Positions 247-4,932 of a DNA stretch of 7,794 nt are shown one piece after another; position 1 is the first letter of the stretch; each line of letters begins with the position of its first letter. The DNA is from JAUXIQ01 sp030620925 [NCBI: Nitrospinota bacterium] (GTDB lineage: Bacteria; JAUXIQ01). A program made the translations under genes and the position numbers. The stretch covers positions 1 through 7,794 of the forward strand of contig JAUXIQ010000080.1 of NCBI GenBank assembly GCA_030620925.1, given 5' to 3'. The notes under the pieces were generated by a model. It saw only the letters and a program-made list of their open reading frames with translations. It had not been told where the DNA came from and searched no databases.

Positions 247-732
247 ATGGGCAGCAAGTTGAAATCGTTAGTGCTGGCAGGATGCTCCTTCCCATTGGTT
301 TTCAGATACGCACAGGCCGCACATCTCACCGTCAGCGAAAAACCGGGCGAGCCTCTATCCCTCTACGTCATGGCGGGGGGCGGCCTGGCCCTCATATTTC
401 CCGGGATTCTTTTCCTGCTGGGCGTCTTTCTGGCCAGAGGCGTCAAGAAGGGGTGGGGCTTGATTGCTTCAGGGGCGGCCCTTATTATAATCGGAGCGAT
501 AATTACCGCTGAGAGAGAAGAAGGGGGGGCGGCGATCGACCACCGCCTGTTTTCCCTGCCCCTCATACTGCTGCTGGTTTTTTTCGGCCTGGGGGTGTTC
601 CTGCTGCTGTTCTGGGCTTACAGGACGGGCCAGTTTAAAGAAATGGAGGGAGTGAAACATAGAATGCTGGAGAGGGAACTCGGTTTCCTTTGCGATAACC
701 GGGAGAAGGACGGAGGAGAGCCGGATGAGTGA
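247..732 (+). CDS. Membrane protein with C-terminal CcoS/FixS-like cbb3 oxidase assembly domain
   Basis: This 161-residue protein has predicted membrane segments at about 42-62, 70-87 and 104-124, and an N-terminal hydrophobic stretch at about 7-24. Residues 104-142 resemble CcoS (FixS), the roughly 50-residue protein needed to mature cbb3-type oxidase: a hydrophobic helix followed by FWAYRTGQF, then EMEG and a basic HRML stretch, matching the family pattern FWAxxSGQF-DDLEGPAxRIL. Its direct fit to ccoN supports this. The first 100 residues are not part of ordinary CcoS and I do not recognise them. An LAGC lipobox-like motif ends at C13, but the preceding hydrophobic stretch is very short. 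The ATG is the first possible start after an in-frame stop at 229-231; its ribosome-binding site is weak (AGG about 10 bp upstream). The last 8 bases overlap ccoN, which suggests translational coupling. CDS confident; CcoS assignment moderate; role of the extension unknown. Confidence 0.75.
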   Translation: MGSKLKSLVLAGCSFPLVFRYAQAAHLTVSEKPGEPLSLYVMAGGGLALIFPGILFLLGVFLARGVKKGWGLIASGAALIIIGAIITAEREEGGAAIDHRLFSLPLILLLVFFGLGVFLLLFWAYRTGQFKEMEGVKHRMLERELGFLCDNREKDGGEPDE

Positions 733-2083
733 TACCCTGGTGGATACCAAACTGGTGAAGAATTTCCTCATATCGTCTTTAATATGGTTCATGGTGGCGA
801 TCGTGATCGGCCTGATCATCTCTTTAAAACTGCTCTACCCCGATTTCCTGGGACACATCTCATGGCTCTCCTACGGGAGGCTTCGGCTGGTGCACACAAA
901 CGGGATAGTCTTCGGCTGGCTGACCACCGCTTTCATCGGACTGGCCTACTACCTTACCCCCCGTCTTACCGGCGTCCCCATGTACAGCGACAGGCTGGCT
1001 AGGCTTACCCTCTGGATGTGGAACGGGATAATAGTCATAGTCGTGGTTACCCTCCTGGCGGGCTACAACCAGGGGTTGGAATGGGCTGAAATTGCTTTCC
1101 CCGTGGATATTCTGGTGATGGCGGCGCTGATCATAGTCACCGTCAACGTGTTCAAGACGGTGTTCCGGCGGAAGGAAAAACAGCTCTACGTGAGCCTGTG
1201 GTACCTGTGCGGGGCTCTGGTATGGACGATCATGAATTACGCCGTGGGAAACACCATCCCCTACTATTTCGCCTCGGGCGTAAACGGCGCGGCCATCTCC
1301 GGTTTCTATATCCACAACGTGGTGGGCCTGTGGGTGACGCCGGTCGGTCTGGCCATCGCCTATTATCTATTCCCCGTCCTCACCCGTTCCCCCCTCTACA
1401 GCCATAAAATTTCCATACTCGGTTTCTGGACGCTGGCCTTTTTGTATCCTTTCACCGGCGCCCACCATTTTATATACAGCGCCATACCCTCCTGGGTGCA
1501 GACGGTGGCCATCGTCACCAGCATGCTGCTCATTCTTCCGGTGTGGACGGTGATGACCAACTTCCTGGGCACCATGAGAGGCAACTGGGAAAAAGCGATA
1601 GGAAACACCCCCTTGAAATTTCTCATCGCAGGCGCCCTGTTCTATCTGTTGACCTGTATACAGGGACCCGTTCAGGCGCTGGCGACGCTGCAGCCCATAT
1701 TGCATTTCACCGACTGGGTAGTGGGGCATGCCCACATGGCGCTACTGGGCGTCTTCTCATTTTGGGTCATCGCCGCCATTTACGCCCTGCTCCCGGCACT
1801 CACCGGCAGACAGATATGGAGCAAAACCTTGAGCGAGGCCCATTACTGGCTCACGCTCATACCGGTGGCCGTCTTCTTGCTGACCCTCTGGGCGGTAGGC
1901 CTGATAGAAGGGACCATGTGGAGCGCCGGAGTCTCCTTCTATACCCCTCTTCAGGCGGCCAAGCCTTACTGGTTGGTTAGGACCGCCGCCGGCTCGGTGA
2001 TAATAGCCGCCCAGGTTCTCTTCGTTGTTAACGTTTTTAAAACCATTACTTCGGGCAAACCGGTGACGGCCGAAACCTCATAG
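725..2083 (+). CDS. ccoN: cbb3-type cytochrome c oxidase subunit I, catalytic subunit
   Basis: This 452-residue, roughly 12-helix inner-membrane protein is the subunit that reduces O2 to water and pumps protons; it carries low-spin haem b and the haem b3-CuB centre. Visible ligands are H57 (RLVHTNG) and H337 for the low-spin haem, H335 for haem b3 (GHAH), and H197, H247 and H248 (TGAHH) for CuB. Y241 lies 44 residues after H197 and 6 before H247, the spacing of the cross-linked His207-Tyr251 pair and His257/258 in Pseudomonas stutzeri CcoN as I recall it. The GLEWAE...P.DI segment (117-129) is also typical of CcoN. It is somewhat shorter than the usual 470-490 residues. One oddity is Q313, in IQGP, where the family normally has Glu (P. 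stutzeri Glu323). The ATG has a strong ribosome-binding site, GGAGGAG at 712-718. The cbb3-type assignment is supported by ccoO downstream; a NorB-type reductase is unlikely given the Tyr and the CcoO partner. Confidence 0.96.
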   Translation: MSDTLVDTKLVKNFLISSLIWFMVAIVIGLIISLKLLYPDFLGHISWLSYGRLRLVHTNGIVFGWLTTAFIGLAYYLTPRLTGVPMYSDRLARLTLWMWNGIIVIVVVTLLAGYNQGLEWAEIAFPVDILVMAALIIVTVNVFKTVFRRKEKQLYVSLWYLCGALVWTIMNYAVGNTIPYYFASGVNGAAISGFYIHNVVGLWVTPVGLAIAYYLFPVLTRSPLYSHKISILGFWTLAFLYPFTGAHHFIYSAIPSWVQTVAIVTSMLLILPVWTVMTNFLGTMRGNWEKAIGNTPLKFLIAGALFYLLTCIQGPVQALATLQPILHFTDWVVGHAHMALLGVFSFWVIAAIYALLPALTGRQIWSKTLSEAHYWLTLIPVAVFLLTLWAVGLIEGTMWSAGVSFYTPLQAAKPYWLVRTAAGSVIIAAQVLFVVNVFKTITSGKPVTAETS

Positions 2084-2146
2084 CGCGCGGAATAAAGGGC
2101 AATGCTTCAGCGTCATAGATATATTGATACCCTGAAGGAGTAATCG

Positions 2147-2974
2147 ATGAGATTGAATAATCTGATATTTATAGCCGGCTTGGGGTTTTTCATGATCTCG
2201 TTCTTCATAGTGGGGATCCTGCCCTGGATTCAGGGCGCCGACTTAAAGCCCGCGCCTTACCTCACCGACTATAACGAAATTGAGAGCCTGGGACGCAAAA
2301 TTTATATCCGGGAAGTATGCTGGCACTGCCATACCCAGTTTGTCAGGCCGGTGGGAGGCGAAAGCGAGAGGTACGGGCCCGTCTCCTCGATCAACGAGTA
2401 CGTTTACGACAAACCGCAACTGTTCGGCACCAGGAGGATCGGCCCCGATCTGGCCCGGGAAGGGGGCAAGAGGACGGACGGGTGGCATACGGCGCATCTG
2501 AAAAACCCCCAGGCGCTGGTCTCCGCATCGGTGATGCCCAAATATACATGGCTGACCGATGAGGAAGTAAAAGCGCTCACAGCCTATCTGCAGAAGCTGG
2601 GCACGGGGATAGGCGATTGGCGCGCCGCCAGGGCGGCTGAAGCGGCGCCCAAAGAAGAGGAGAAAGGGGTCGATAAGGCTCCAGTGGCGGTTTCGGCGGA
2701 ATTGCTGGCCAAGGGGAAACAGGTCTATCAGCAGCTCTGCGTCGGCTGCCACGGCCCCAATGGAGACGGCAAAGGCCCGGTGGCCGCAGCACTCACGCCC
2801 AAACCGGCGGATTTCACGGACGACGAATGGAAACAGGGTGGAACCGACCGGGAAGTTTTCAACACCATCACCAGGGGCGTCCCCGGCACGGCCATGCCCC
2901 CCTTCGGGGCGCAGCTCAGCGAGGGAGACCGCCGGGGTCTCGTATTTTACGTTAAATCATTTTCCGAAAAGTGA
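2147..2974 (+). CDS. ccoO: cbb3-type oxidase cytochrome c subunit II (CcoO) fused to a second cytochrome c domain
   Basis: This 275-residue protein has one N-terminal membrane anchor (about 6-28) and a periplasmic part with two c-type haem sites. Residues 35-155 are CcoO: CWHCH at 58-62, then RPVGGE-ERYG, the GTRRIGPDLAREGG segment, and the axial Met in SVMPKYTWL (M130). After an Ala/Glu/Lys-rich linker (160-180), residues 186-275 form a second monohaem cytochrome c domain with CVGCH (198-202) and the likely axial M250 in GTAMPPFG. Ordinary CcoO is about 200-240 residues with a single haem, so the C-terminal domain is an addition, perhaps replacing one of the two haem domains of the missing CcoP. 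That domain closely matches the separate cytochrome at 3382-3807. The start has a good site, AAGGAG at 2135-2140. It lies 63 bp after ccoN and probably belongs to the same operon. Confidence 0.94.
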   Translation: MRLNNLIFIAGLGFFMISFFIVGILPWIQGADLKPAPYLTDYNEIESLGRKIYIREVCWHCHTQFVRPVGGESERYGPVSSINEYVYDKPQLFGTRRIGPDLAREGGKRTDGWHTAHLKNPQALVSASVMPKYTWLTDEEVKALTAYLQKLGTGIGDWRAARAAEAAPKEEEKGVDKAPVAVSAELLAKGKQVYQQLCVGCHGPNGDGKGPVAAALTPKPADFTDDEWKQGGTDREVFNTITRGVPGTAMPPFGAQLSEGDRRGLVFYVKSFSEK

Positions 2975-3027
2975 GCAATCGAACCAGAGGAGTAATAAAT
3001 TAATTAGAAACGGGGAGTCGATTTAAA

Positions 3028-3159
3028 ATGACAGACCATAAATACGAACATTTCGACATCGAAGAGAAAGAAGGTAAGGTTCCCGGCTGGCTCAAGGTGG
3101 TATACGTGATAATGATCGTATGGGCCGGCATCTATTTAGCCCTCTATCTGCGACCCTGA
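3028..3159 (+). CDS. Small single-helix protein resembling the CcoP N-terminal anchor
   Basis: This 43-residue ORF runs from ATG at 3028 to TGA at 3157-3159, with GGGGAG at 3012-3017 as a plausible ribosome-binding site. It has a charged N-terminal segment rich in Asp, Glu, His and Lys (2-17), a VPGW turn at 18-21, and one transmembrane helix (about 21-41) ending LYLRP. This is the architecture of the N-terminal anchor domain of CcoP/FixP: an acidic stretch ('DGI-E-DN'), then LPxWW, then a helix rich in Tyr and aromatics. It lacks the dihaem cytochrome part that normally follows. A CcoQ-like small subunit is the main alternative. Its place directly after ccoO, where ccoQ or ccoP normally sits, supports an oxidase subunit, probably a stand-alone anchor helix packing against CcoN. 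Gene call likely; exact homology inferred from pattern and position. Confidence 0.72.
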   Translation: MTDHKYEHFDIEEKEGKVPGWLKVVYVIMIVWAGIYLALYLRP

Positions 3160-3381
3160 ACGGCGGCCAAGGTGTACAGAGTCGTATATACTACATTCAT
3201 CTTCATTTATTGATTTATATCCTTCCTTTTGATAACCTATTTCAACTTGTAAAGCAGGCGGCTCACTCTGAAACCCGACTGCGGCGGGTTGTTCAGAAAG
3301 ATTTTTCGAGCAGATATGTTCGCAGTAAAAAAATTATCCGCTTCATGAAATCGAGCGGGTAAATTTCAAGAGGAGGTTGAG
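3160..3381 (+). other. AT-rich intergenic spacer within the oxidase cluster
   Basis: These 222 bp hold no gene I can support. About 3175-3265 is clearly more AT-rich than the flanking coding DNA. Two small inverted repeats are visible: AACCCG (3272-3277) with CGGGTT (3285-3290), and CCGCT (3338-3342) with AGCGG (3354-3358). Neither is followed by a T-run, so I do not call a terminator. TTGATT (3210-3215) and GATAAC (3231-3236) resemble -35 and -10 boxes but are only 15 bp apart. A strong ribosome-binding site for the next gene, AGGAGG at 3371-3376, closes the spacer. A separate promoter for the downstream cytochrome is plausible but not shown. Confidence 0.4.
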
Positions 3382-3807
3382 ATGACATCGAGCGGAATTC
3401 GCTGGGCGGCTGGACTGGGGGTGATTGCAGCCTTCCTTCTGGTCGGCACAACACAATGGATAGAAAACGCAAACACCGGGTTGATGAACCCCTTAGTCGA
3501 AAAGGCTTACGCCGATGAAAAAAAAGCCACTCCGGAAATGATAGAGAAGGGTAAAAGTATCTACGCCACACTCTGCGTAAGCTGCCACGGCCTCAACGGC
3601 GACGGCAAGGGTCCGGTGGCTGCTGCGTTGACACCCAAACCCGCGGATTTCAACAGCGGTCAATGGAAATACGGGGGCAGCCCCCAGAAGATATACGATA
3701 CGATCACTAAAGGTATTCCTGGAACGACTATGGTCCCCTTCGGCGGCCAGATGGGCGAGGACGACCGGTGGGCGGTGGTGTTTTACGTCAAGTCCTTCTC
3801 AAAGTAG
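3382..3807 (+). CDS. Membrane-anchored monohaem cytochrome c, oxidase-associated
   Basis: This 141-residue protein has an N-terminal hydrophobic segment (about 8-24) that could be an uncleaved anchor; a YADE sequence near 43-46 also leaves cleavage after the Ala at 44 possible. A class I cytochrome c domain covers 52-141, with CVSCH at 65-69 binding haem c and M117 in GTTMVPFG as the likely sixth ligand. It matches the C-terminal domain of the CcoO fusion at about 56 of 85 positions by manual count, including 19 consecutive identical residues after CHGxx (72-90), and both proteins end in FYVKSFS. It probably passes electrons to the oxidase or is one of its subunits, standing in for a CcoP haem domain. 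The start is set by AGGAGG at 3371-3376, 5 bp before the ATG. The same motifs occur in other small cytochromes c, so the physiological partner is inferred from position. Confidence 0.93.
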   Translation: MTSSGIRWAAGLGVIAAFLLVGTTQWIENANTGLMNPLVEKAYADEKKATPEMIEKGKSIYATLCVSCHGLNGDGKGPVAAALTPKPADFNSGQWKYGGSPQKIYDTITKGIPGTTMVPFGGQMGEDDRWAVVFYVKSFSK

Positions 3808-3921
3808 GGTCGGCTTCGCCTGCCGCGGGGCGATCGCTCCTGCTCACCCTCTCGTTTGTGAAGACCGGGGCCGGGTGAGTGTGGCATCAGTCGATCCCCG
3901 AGGTGGATACTGTGAATAATC
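3808..3921 (+). other. Intergenic junction between oxidase cluster and trp genes
   Basis: These 114 bp separate the cytochrome c gene from trpD. I see no hairpin with a T-run, no leader peptide rich in Trp codons and no clear promoter boxes. A 14-bp near-palindrome centred on GCGATCGC lies at 3827-3840. GAGGTGG (3900-3906) is the nearest ribosome-binding-like sequence to trpD but is about 15 bp from its ATG. The boundary between transcription units is therefore unresolved. Confidence 0.35.
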
Positions 3922-4932
3922 ATGCAGGGTGAAATAGCCAAACTGGTTGACGGACGGAACCTCACGGAGGAAGAAGCGCGTTGCGCCATGGAGGCCATCA
4001 TGGACGGTGAAGCTACACCGGCCCAGATCGCCGCCTTCATGGTGGCCCTCAAGATGAAAGGGGAAACGCCGGACGAGATAGCAGGGTGTGCTAAAGCCAT
4101 GCGGGCCAGGGCCTCGGTTATAGAGGTCGATGCACCCCTCCTGGTAGATACCTGCGGGACAGGCGGTGACGGCGCCCACACCTTCAACATCTCCACCACC
4201 GCCGCCTTCGTAGTGGCCGGTGCGGGGGTATACGTGGCCAAACACGGAAACCGGGGCGTCTCCAGCAAGTGTGGCAGCGCCGATCTGCTGGAAGCGCTTG
4301 ATGTTAAGATCGATTTGGAGCCCCTGCGGGTCAAAGCCTGCATAGAGGAGGTGGGTATCGGCTTTATGTTCGCCCCCGTCTTTCACCAGGCCATGAAACA
4401 CGCCGCCGGACCCAGAAAAGAGGTGGGCCAGCGCACCATTTTTAACCTCCTGGGCCCCCTCACCAATCCCGCAGGCGCCTCCTGCCAGATAATCGGGGTA
4501 TACGCCCCGGGACTCACCGGTCTCCTGGCGGAGGTGTTGAAAAAGTTAGGGCATAGCAGAGGCTTCGTGGTCCACGGCATGGAGGGACTGGACGAAATCT
4601 CCAACACCGGTGAGACGCTGATAGCGGAGCTGCGCGACGGGGTGGTTAAAACCTATTCCCTTCACCCCCGGGAACTGGGCATAGACGTCGCCGGCCTGGA
4701 TGATCTCGCCGGCGGCACGGCGCGGGATAACGCGAATATAACCCTTAATATATTAAAGGGAGAAAGAGGGCATCGCACCGATGTGGTGCTCATCAACGCC
4801 GCCGCGGCACTCGTCGCGGCGGAGGCGGCTCCTTCCCTCAAAGAGGGCGTATCCGTGGCCAGGGAATCCCTGGAATCGGGGGCCGCGCTGGGGAAACTTG
4901 ATGCGCTGAGAGAGTTTTGCAGCGGAGGGTGA
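3922..4932 (+). CDS. trpD: Anthranilate phosphoribosyltransferase
   Basis: This 336-residue cytoplasmic enzyme joins anthranilate to phosphoribosyl pyrophosphate to give phosphoribosyl-anthranilate, the second step of the tryptophan branch. An N-terminal helical domain (1-65) precedes the nucleotide-phosphoribosyltransferase fold. Diagnostic motifs are GTGGD (79-83) for PRPP binding, KHGNRGVSSKCGSADLLEAL (107-126), R165 in the GPRKEVGQRT anthranilate-site segment, NLLGPLTNP (175-183), and the magnesium-binding D224-E225 in GLDEIS. Length is normal. There is no glutamine amidotransferase (TrpG) fusion. The ATG gives the usual N terminus, but the upstream GAGGTGG is about 15 bp away, farther than ideal. 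It is the first gene of the trp run; trpC begins 2 bp after its stop. Confidence 0.97.
   Translation: MQGEIAKLVDGRNLTEEEARCAMEAIMDGEATPAQIAAFMVALKMKGETPDEIAGCAKAMRARASVIEVDAPLLVDTCGTGGDGAHTFNISTTAAFVVAGAGVYVAKHGNRGVSSKCGSADLLEALDVKIDLEPLRVKACIEEVGIGFMFAPVFHQAMKHAAGPRKEVGQRTIFNLLGPLTNPAGASCQIIGVYAPGLTGLLAEVLKKLGHSRGFVVHGMEGLDEISNTGETLIAELRDGVVKTYSLHPRELGIDVAGLDDLAGGTARDNANITLNILKGERGHRTDVVLINAAAALVAAEAAPSLKEGVSVARESLESGAALGKLDALREFCSGG

What the first reader, a model, noticed from the sequence alone, without database searches (positions are those of the whole stretch)
247..3807. Rearranged cbb3 oxidase cluster without a canonical CcoP
Seen: ccoN, a ccoO carrying an extra cytochrome c domain, a 43-residue CcoP-anchor-like ORF and a separate anchored cytochrome c, preceded by a CcoS-like protein. 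Known: the standard order is ccoNOQP, with CcoP holding an anchor plus two cytochrome c domains. Inference: the parts of CcoP have been redistributed, one haem onto CcoO, one onto a separate protein, and the anchor as a mini-subunit. Such an enzyme would have the usual three c-haems in a different arrangement, which could change its electron donor or docking.
Basis: partly seen in the sequence, partly recalled or inferred. Interest (0 to 1): 0.6.

Follow-up and report, generated by a model that had tools for sequence, protein, structure and literature searches.

The report
Free-anchor cbb3 oxidase without CcoP
This is an oxygen-consuming respiratory enzyme (cbb3 type) in which the usual third subunit is not one protein: its membrane anchor is a tiny separate protein and the electron-carrying haem parts sit elsewhere, a layout that turns out to be widespread in bacteria and may be older than the textbook one.

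Summary
In detail: CcoS-like protein, CcoN, CcoO with an extra cytochrome c domain, a 43-aa CcoP-anchor-like ORF and a separate monohaem cytochrome c; no ccoP over cut-off elsewhere in this 89.5%-complete MAG. The reading "CcoP was taken apart here" is half right. The anchor is homologous to the CcoP N-terminus (profile match 96%; column-shuffled nulls at most 37%), but it is no local oddity: 67 of 80 named relatives carry such an anchor after ccoN, 60 without haem motif, under twelve phylum names; Sinorhizobium plasmids have it beside a three-haem CcoO. The catalytic subunit differs too: the Glu323 position (3mk7) is Gln in 84 of 84 non-CcoP rows, Glu in 12 of 12 CcoP rows and 5 of 5 solved chains. 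In a second sample 32 Glu enzymes all have a haem-bearing CcoP; of 26 Gln enzymes 16 have a free anchor, 3 anchor+haem, 7 none found. The Glu/CcoP clade is nested among Gln enzymes (Gln monophyly rejected, p=0.0005, post hoc). The window's two extra cytochromes are duplicates of each other (98/95), not CcoP's two domains; whether the separate one belongs to the complex is unproven. New variant of a known kind.

The parts
247..732 (+). CcoS/FixS-like assembly protein with an extra N-terminal membrane part
   Evidence: PF03597 31.9 bits over residues 106-141, cut-off 23.1
725..2083 (+). CcoN, catalytic subunit of a C-family haem-copper oxidase, Gln type
   Evidence: PF00115 289.4 bits; best PDB hits are cbb3 CcoN chains; ligands and Tyr241 (=Tyr251 in 3mk7_A) conserved
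1661..1663 (+). codon CAG for Gln313, at the position of Glu323 in 3mk7_A
   Evidence: alignment; Q in 84/84 non-CcoP rows, E in 12/12 CcoP rows
2147..2974 (+). CcoO with two haem c sites: FixO domain plus a C-terminal cytochrome c domain (about 2690-2965)
   Evidence: PF02433 152.7 bits, Cytochrom_C at residues 188-271; domain place
3028..3159 (+). free-standing CcoP-type membrane anchor, 43 aa, no haem motif
   Evidence: PF14715 35.7 bits; profile match to CcoP N-termini 96.4%; conserved after ccoN in relatives
3382..3807 (+). separate monohaem cytochrome c, tandem duplicate of the CcoO C-terminal domain
   Evidence: Cytochrom_C 54.3 bits; 62% identical to 2690-2965; sister in tree 98/95

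Best explanation
The cluster encodes a C-family (cbb3-type) O2 reductase of a widespread 'Gln type', whose third subunit is only the CcoP membrane anchor without haem. Electrons would enter through the second haem domain fused to CcoO (and perhaps the duplicated separate cytochrome), pass to the CcoO haem, then to haem b and the haem b3-CuB site of CcoN. The free anchor would pack against CcoN where the CcoP helix sits in solved cbb3 enzymes and stabilise the complex. The donor is probably the cytochrome bc-type complex with a multihaem cytochrome that the same genome encodes. Shown: gene content, homologies, active-site residues, recurrence, correlation with the Gln, duplication. Inferred: complex membership, position of the anchor, electron path, donor. 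In evolution Gln looks older than Glu, and the free anchor may be older than CcoP.
For: Homologies. Anchor = CcoP N-terminus: hhalign 96.4% (95.4% without the window), 40 column-shuffled nulls max 37.2%, CcoS control 5.2%, reversed controls 23.8% and 8.7%; no FixQ match among 31 members at E<=0.1. Recurrence: 67 of 80 named loci, 60 without CXXCH; a model of canonical CcoP N-termini alone finds 15 loci (one, L124, was in its seed) and 0 elsewhere at E<=0.05. Gln/Glu split 84/84 vs 12/12, 5/5 PDB chains Glu; second sample of 60 CcoN (58 new): Glu 32/32 with haem-bearing CcoP and one-haem CcoO; Gln 26 with 16 free, 3 anchor+haem, 7 none. Natural anchor+1-haem fusions in Bacillota. Three-haem CcoO plus free anchor on Sinorhizobium plasmids. 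Own bc-type complex: Rieske, cyt b, multihaem c; cyt b on the ccoN strand of the fetched locus in 18 of 80 named loci.
Against: No biochemistry. The anchor is short; its profile match rests on about 40 columns around one membrane helix, and anchors against their own reversal still reach 47%, so helix composition alone scores something. Pfam FixP_N misses it in 17 of 20 relatives' genomes at E<=1e-3 (one of the 3 hits is the CcoP-bearing L124 genome) and hits only 10 of 31 members at E<=0.1, where CrgA also hits 5 weakly (best 0.0088). All three models behind the 67 of 80 were seeded in part from these loci. 7 of 26 Gln enzymes of the second sample and 13 of 80 named loci show no anchor (3 and 9 of them on contigs or loci that end nearby). 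Free ancestor beats fused ancestor by only 4 against 5 changes.
Confidence: 0.75

Rival explanations
1. One reading: a normal ccoP was split here, its two haem domains going to CcoO and to the separate cytochrome, its anchor left as a mini-subunit.
For: Three CXXCH sites and one CcoP anchor in the cluster; the best NCBIfam hit of the separate cytochrome is to ccoP's second haem domain.
Against: The two extra haem domains are sisters of each other (98/95; the backbone of that tree is unresolved); the nearest relatives have two c-haems in the cluster; CcoP enzymes form one clade nested among the others.
Confidence: 0.1
2. A broken ccoP: frameshift, decay or assembly error cut a normal gene into anchor and cytochrome.
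For: Anchor and cytochrome lie in the ccoP order, 222 bases apart.
Against: Free anchors of similar size recur under twelve phylum names; the cytochrome has, by eye, its own ribosome site and an N-terminal hydrophobic stretch; only one haem domain is present and it is a CcoO duplicate.
Confidence: 0.03
3. The separate cytochrome is not a subunit but a diffusible or membrane-tethered donor (or serves the cell's other, ba3-like oxidase), and the oxidase proper has two c-haems.
For: Not beside ccoNO in L047-L049; 222-base gap after the anchor gene; a ba3-like oxidase is encoded on C10; possible signal-peptidase site some way after the hydrophobic stretch (by eye).
Against: Same strand, no promoter-like or terminator-like site between 3160 and 3381 in the scan; close kinship to the CcoO domain.
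Confidence: 0.5
4. The enzyme is a nitric oxide reductase rather than an O2 reductase.
For: C-family oxidases and cNOR are relatives; NorB chains hit at much lower score.
Against: Tyr at the cross-link position in 84/84 non-CcoP rows, no Tyr just before the HH pair in 3 NorB; FixO and FixS present.
Confidence: 0.05

Closest known systems
Canonical cbb3 oxidase CcoNO(Q)P (P. stutzeri 3mk7, R. capsulatus 6xkw)
   Same: CcoN family, haem and CuB ligands, cross-link tyrosine, CcoO haem domain, a CcoP-type anchor helix
   Different: No haem on the anchor; extra haem domain on CcoO; Gln instead of Glu323; CcoS upstream with an extra membrane part
NCBIfam PRK14486, 'putative bifunctional cbb3-type cytochrome c oxidase subunit II/cytochrome c'
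   Same: CcoO fused to a cytochrome c domain is thus already named (179.7 bits)
   Different: Below that family's cut-off (447 bits); its description says nothing of a free anchor
'Unknown group' near authentic cbb3 in PF00115 trees (Muntyan 2015, cited in PMC5492636)
   Same: [quoted passage not shown] it may overlap the Gln type (inference)
   Different: Identity not checked: the 2015 paper is not held; subunit make-up is not mentioned in the passages seen
Aneurinibacillus/Brevibacillus CcoP with anchor plus one haem
   Same: Same anchor family, Gln-type CcoN
   Different: Anchor fused to a cytochrome domain; CcoO has one haem

Membership tests
C-family haem-copper (cbb3-type) oxidase | CcoN with haem b/b3 and CuB histidines and helix-VII tyrosine | tested here: met
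   His57, 197, 247, 248, 335, 337 and Tyr241
C-family haem-copper (cbb3-type) oxidase | CcoO membrane cytochrome c | tested here: met
   PF02433 152.7 bits
C-family haem-copper (cbb3-type) oxidase | O2 reduction and ion pumping | not testable with these tools
   needs enzyme
Canonical CcoNOQP cbb3 oxidase | haem-bearing CcoP with N-terminal anchor | tested here: not met
   only the anchor is present; no ccoP over cut-off in the genome, which is incomplete
Canonical CcoNOQP cbb3 oxidase | Glu at position 323 (3mk7_A) | tested here: not met
   Gln313
Canonical CcoNOQP cbb3 oxidase | monohaem CcoO | tested here: not met
   two CXXCH; 32/32 Glu-type enzymes of the second sample have one
Gln-type, free-anchor C-family oxidases (as defined here) | Gln at the 323 position and an anchor ORF without CXXCH after ccoN | tested here: met
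cNOR | no cross-link tyrosine; NorC partner | tested here: not met
   Tyr241 present, FixO partner

The most novel reading that the evidence does not exclude
The textbook CcoP is a late invention: ancestral cbb3 oxidases had a free-standing, haem-less anchor subunit and Gln at the Glu323 position; CcoP arose when cytochrome c domains were fused to that anchor (once in the Glu clade, again in Bacillota and a few other lines), together with a single Gln-to-Glu change. The anchor, not the haems, is the conserved core of the third subunit, and the haems are interchangeable modules that sit on CcoO, on the anchor or on separate proteins.
Probability: 0.45. Interest if true: 0.65.

Novelty: new variant of a known kind. 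Interest (0 to 1): 0.52.

Why it matters
cbb3 oxidases support respiration at very low oxygen and are usually described as CcoNOQP with three c-haems (recalled). A broad grade of bacteria instead uses a haem-less anchor subunit that Pfam's model mostly misses, with haem domains moved to CcoO in many of them, and a fixed Glu/Gln difference in CcoN. That gives a concrete, testable order of events for how the third subunit was assembled, an assembly subunit to test in a tractable Sinorhizobium, and a warning against calling such enzymes incomplete because 'ccoP is missing'.

Tried and rejected
Considered and rejected: pseudogene or split ccoP; CcoQ (no FixQ match in 31 members); aa3 subunit IV (only E=0.63 to 7ate_D); NOR. 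Considered for Planctomycete loci: alternative complex III upstream; dropped because the ~220-aa membrane protein has no Pfam match.

Led nowhere: AlphaFold2 of CcoO gave mean pLDDT 61, pTM 0.40, so I ran no fold search. A phylum search round G047 held one genome only. Rfam found nothing. The promoter/terminator scan of 1900-4000 found no promoter-like site and 3 terminator-like sites, as many as shuffles. PMC4013037 (passages) says nothing on CcoP-less cbb3. Supplements could not be read.

Mistakes and drops: the first anchor iteration crashed (redone in 23). Wrong ORFs stood for L013 and L015 and for L014 and L015; redone. L040, a long odd row, was left out of later trees and of the counts; L077 was left out of the tree. 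The first AU test (53 non-CcoP rows as one clade, p=0.289) did not reject; there the single Gln row nearest the CcoP clade (L039) stood on the other side. The later test (28 Gln rows, p=0.0005) was named after seeing a tree and used 43 of the 83 rows; on 77 rows it did not finish. From I fetched 60 of 67 matches; 2 of the 60 (G025, G050) were already in the first set. L232 (Ile) and L233 (Asp) fit neither class. In the alignment NorB is shifted round the first CuB His, so that column is not used against NOR. L144's CcoP reads as two ORFs with one CXXCH each.
Full report
What is in the window. The cluster 247-3807 holds, on one strand, a CcoS-like protein, CcoN, a CcoO with a second cytochrome c domain, a 43-aa ORF with the CcoP N-terminal domain FixP_N over Pfam's cut-off, and a separate monohaem cytochrome c; trp genes follow (trpD by Pfam, the others by eye). 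The genome is a 2.5 Mb MAG in 445 contigs, 89.5% complete; the genomes drawn as relatives and listed are no nearer than 'same domain'. Elsewhere it has a ba3-like oxidase (C10, by eye from subunits I and II), a small COX1-like protein (C32) and a bc-type complex with Rieske, cytochrome b and a multihaem cytochrome cut by a contig end (C402). No other FixP_N and no ccoP over the cut-off were found (Caulobacter rings in both as control); the genome is incomplete, so absence is not proof.

The anchor is real and is a CcoP anchor. From 80 named CcoN relatives I took ORFs downstream of ccoN. Free small ORFs of the same kind recur. A profile of 21 free anchors matches a profile of 8 canonical CcoP N-termini at 96.4% probability (95.4% without the window); 40 nulls with columns shuffled inside the hydrophobic and polar classes reached at most 37.2%, CcoS gave 5.2%, reversed profiles 23.8% and 8.7%; anchors against their own reversal gave 47%. 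The three divergent anchors L094, L099, L125 match CcoP at 75.5%, the Bacillota anchors at 87.3%. Counting with three models, 67 of 80 loci have an anchor 0.3-4.2 kb after ccoN, and each model has at most one hit elsewhere among 9217 ORFs; 60 of the 67 ORFs have no CXXCH, 7 have one. All three models were seeded in part from these loci; a model from canonical CcoP alone still finds 15 loci (14 without its own seed L124) at E<=0.05 with none elsewhere, and 25 against 1 at E<=1. Of the 13 misses, 9 have under 1500 bases after ccoN; L065, L092 (weak hit, E 0.17), L106 and L112 have room. Pfam's own model mostly misses the family: 3 of 20 genomes tried of the 80 at E<=1e-3, one of them the CcoP-bearing L124 genome, and 10 of 31 members at E<=0.1. 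The free form stands under twelve NCBI phylum-level names, plus 7 loci without one (mostly MAGs), and also on two Sinorhizobium plasmids next to a CcoO with three CXXCH.

The extra haems. CcoO's second domain and the separate cytochrome are identical at 57 of 90 residues; the next best, the Tectomicrobia CcoO domain, has 50 of 90 and 43 of 91. In a tree of 40 haem domains they are sisters at 98/95, while most of the backbone is unresolved. So the separate cytochrome is a duplicate of the CcoO domain (or the reverse) and not the other half of a CcoP. The nearest relatives, L047-L049, have the two-haem CcoO and the anchor but no such cytochrome beside them. Among the window and the 80 named loci CcoO carries one haem motif in 68 and two in 10; in 3 no CcoO was in reach.

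The catalytic subunit is of a distinct type. Ligands and the cross-link tyrosine are kept. At the position of Glu323 of 3mk7_A (window Gln313) all 12 rows with a haem-bearing CcoP have Glu and all 84 other cbb3 rows have Gln (haem motifs of the four plasmid CcoPs counted); all five solved CcoN chains have Glu. To test this on other genomes I searched 389 genomes (65, own included, with CcoN at E<=1e-50) and fetched 60 of 67 matches. Result: Glu in 32, all 32 with an anchor fused to at least one haem motif and with a one-haem CcoO; Gln in 26, of which 16 have a free anchor, 3 an anchor with one haem, 7 none found (three on contigs ending nearby); one Asp, one Ile. CcoO of the Gln enzymes carries one haem in 6, two in 9, three in 7, and was not found in 4.

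Order of events. Rooted on three NorB, the CcoP rows form one clade (100/98) among free-anchor rows. Holding all other cbb3 rows of that set together was not rejected (p 0.289), but there the one Gln row nearest to CcoP enzymes (L039) stood on the other side. With eight such Gln rows, they and the Glu rows form a clade at 100/100 and Gln monophyly is rejected (p 0.0005; a post hoc test). Parsimony on that tree needs one change if Gln is ancestral and three if Glu is; for the anchor 4 changes if free is ancestral and 5 if fused is. So Gln-first is fairly well supported, free-anchor-first only favoured.

How it probably works. Inferred: electrons from a bc-type complex (own genome; cytochrome b in the locus of 18 of 80 relatives) pass to the extra CcoO haem, the CcoO haem, haem b and the b3-CuB site; the anchor helix takes the place of the CcoP helix; the separate cytochrome is either a third haem of the complex or a donor. 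None of this is shown biochemically, and the one structure prediction was too poor to use.

What is known. CcoO fused to cytochrome c is already a named NCBIfam family. [quoted passage not shown] that this is the same Glu and the same group is my inference. Muntyan 2015 and Ducluzeau 2008 are not held. In the listings (titles and starts of abstracts; several showed only part of the papers found) I saw no paper on a free-standing CcoP anchor; the library leaves out most subscription journals, so earlier notice is quite possible. Roles of P. stutzeri residues beyond the alignment are recalled, not checked.

Verdict.

Noticed in passing
L137 5950-9441 (S. meliloti AK76 pSymA), L138 5887-9438 (S. 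americanum plasmid C): Gln-type ccoN, three-haem CcoO (554 aa) and a free anchor ORF on large plasmids, beside genes that look by eye like groEL and ALAS; no annotated feature is given there.
   Followed up: partly
L067 5071-6875, L087 2178-4061 and other Planctomycete loci: Upstream of ccoN lie a dihaem cytochrome and a ~220-aa membrane protein without Pfam match; the latter is on the ccoN strand in 41 of 80 named loci.
   Followed up: partly
L061 5208-7010; own genome L044 3364-4344: Multihaem cytochrome (7 and at least 5 CXXCH) next to cytochrome b, with a stretch resembling FixO (25.2 and 33.7 bits, cut-off 29.6): possible direct link between bc-type complex and oxidase.
   Followed up: no
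own genome L003 1468-1992: 174-aa COX1-like membrane protein standing alone on C32 (23.3 bits, below cut-off).
   Followed up: no
window 247-560: The CcoS-like protein has an extra N-terminal membrane part; the Planctomycete CcoS-like protein L067 9580-9864 is also extended.
   Followed up: no
L192, L193, L195, L196, L198: Free anchors with a longer C-terminal tail that resembles the start of the CcoP linker; they belong to the Gln group that is sister to the Glu/CcoP clade, a possible intermediate (L193 and L195 were not in the tree).
   Followed up: partly
L232 (Ile), L233 (Asp): Two distant CcoN with neither Glu nor Gln at the 323 position.
   Followed up: no
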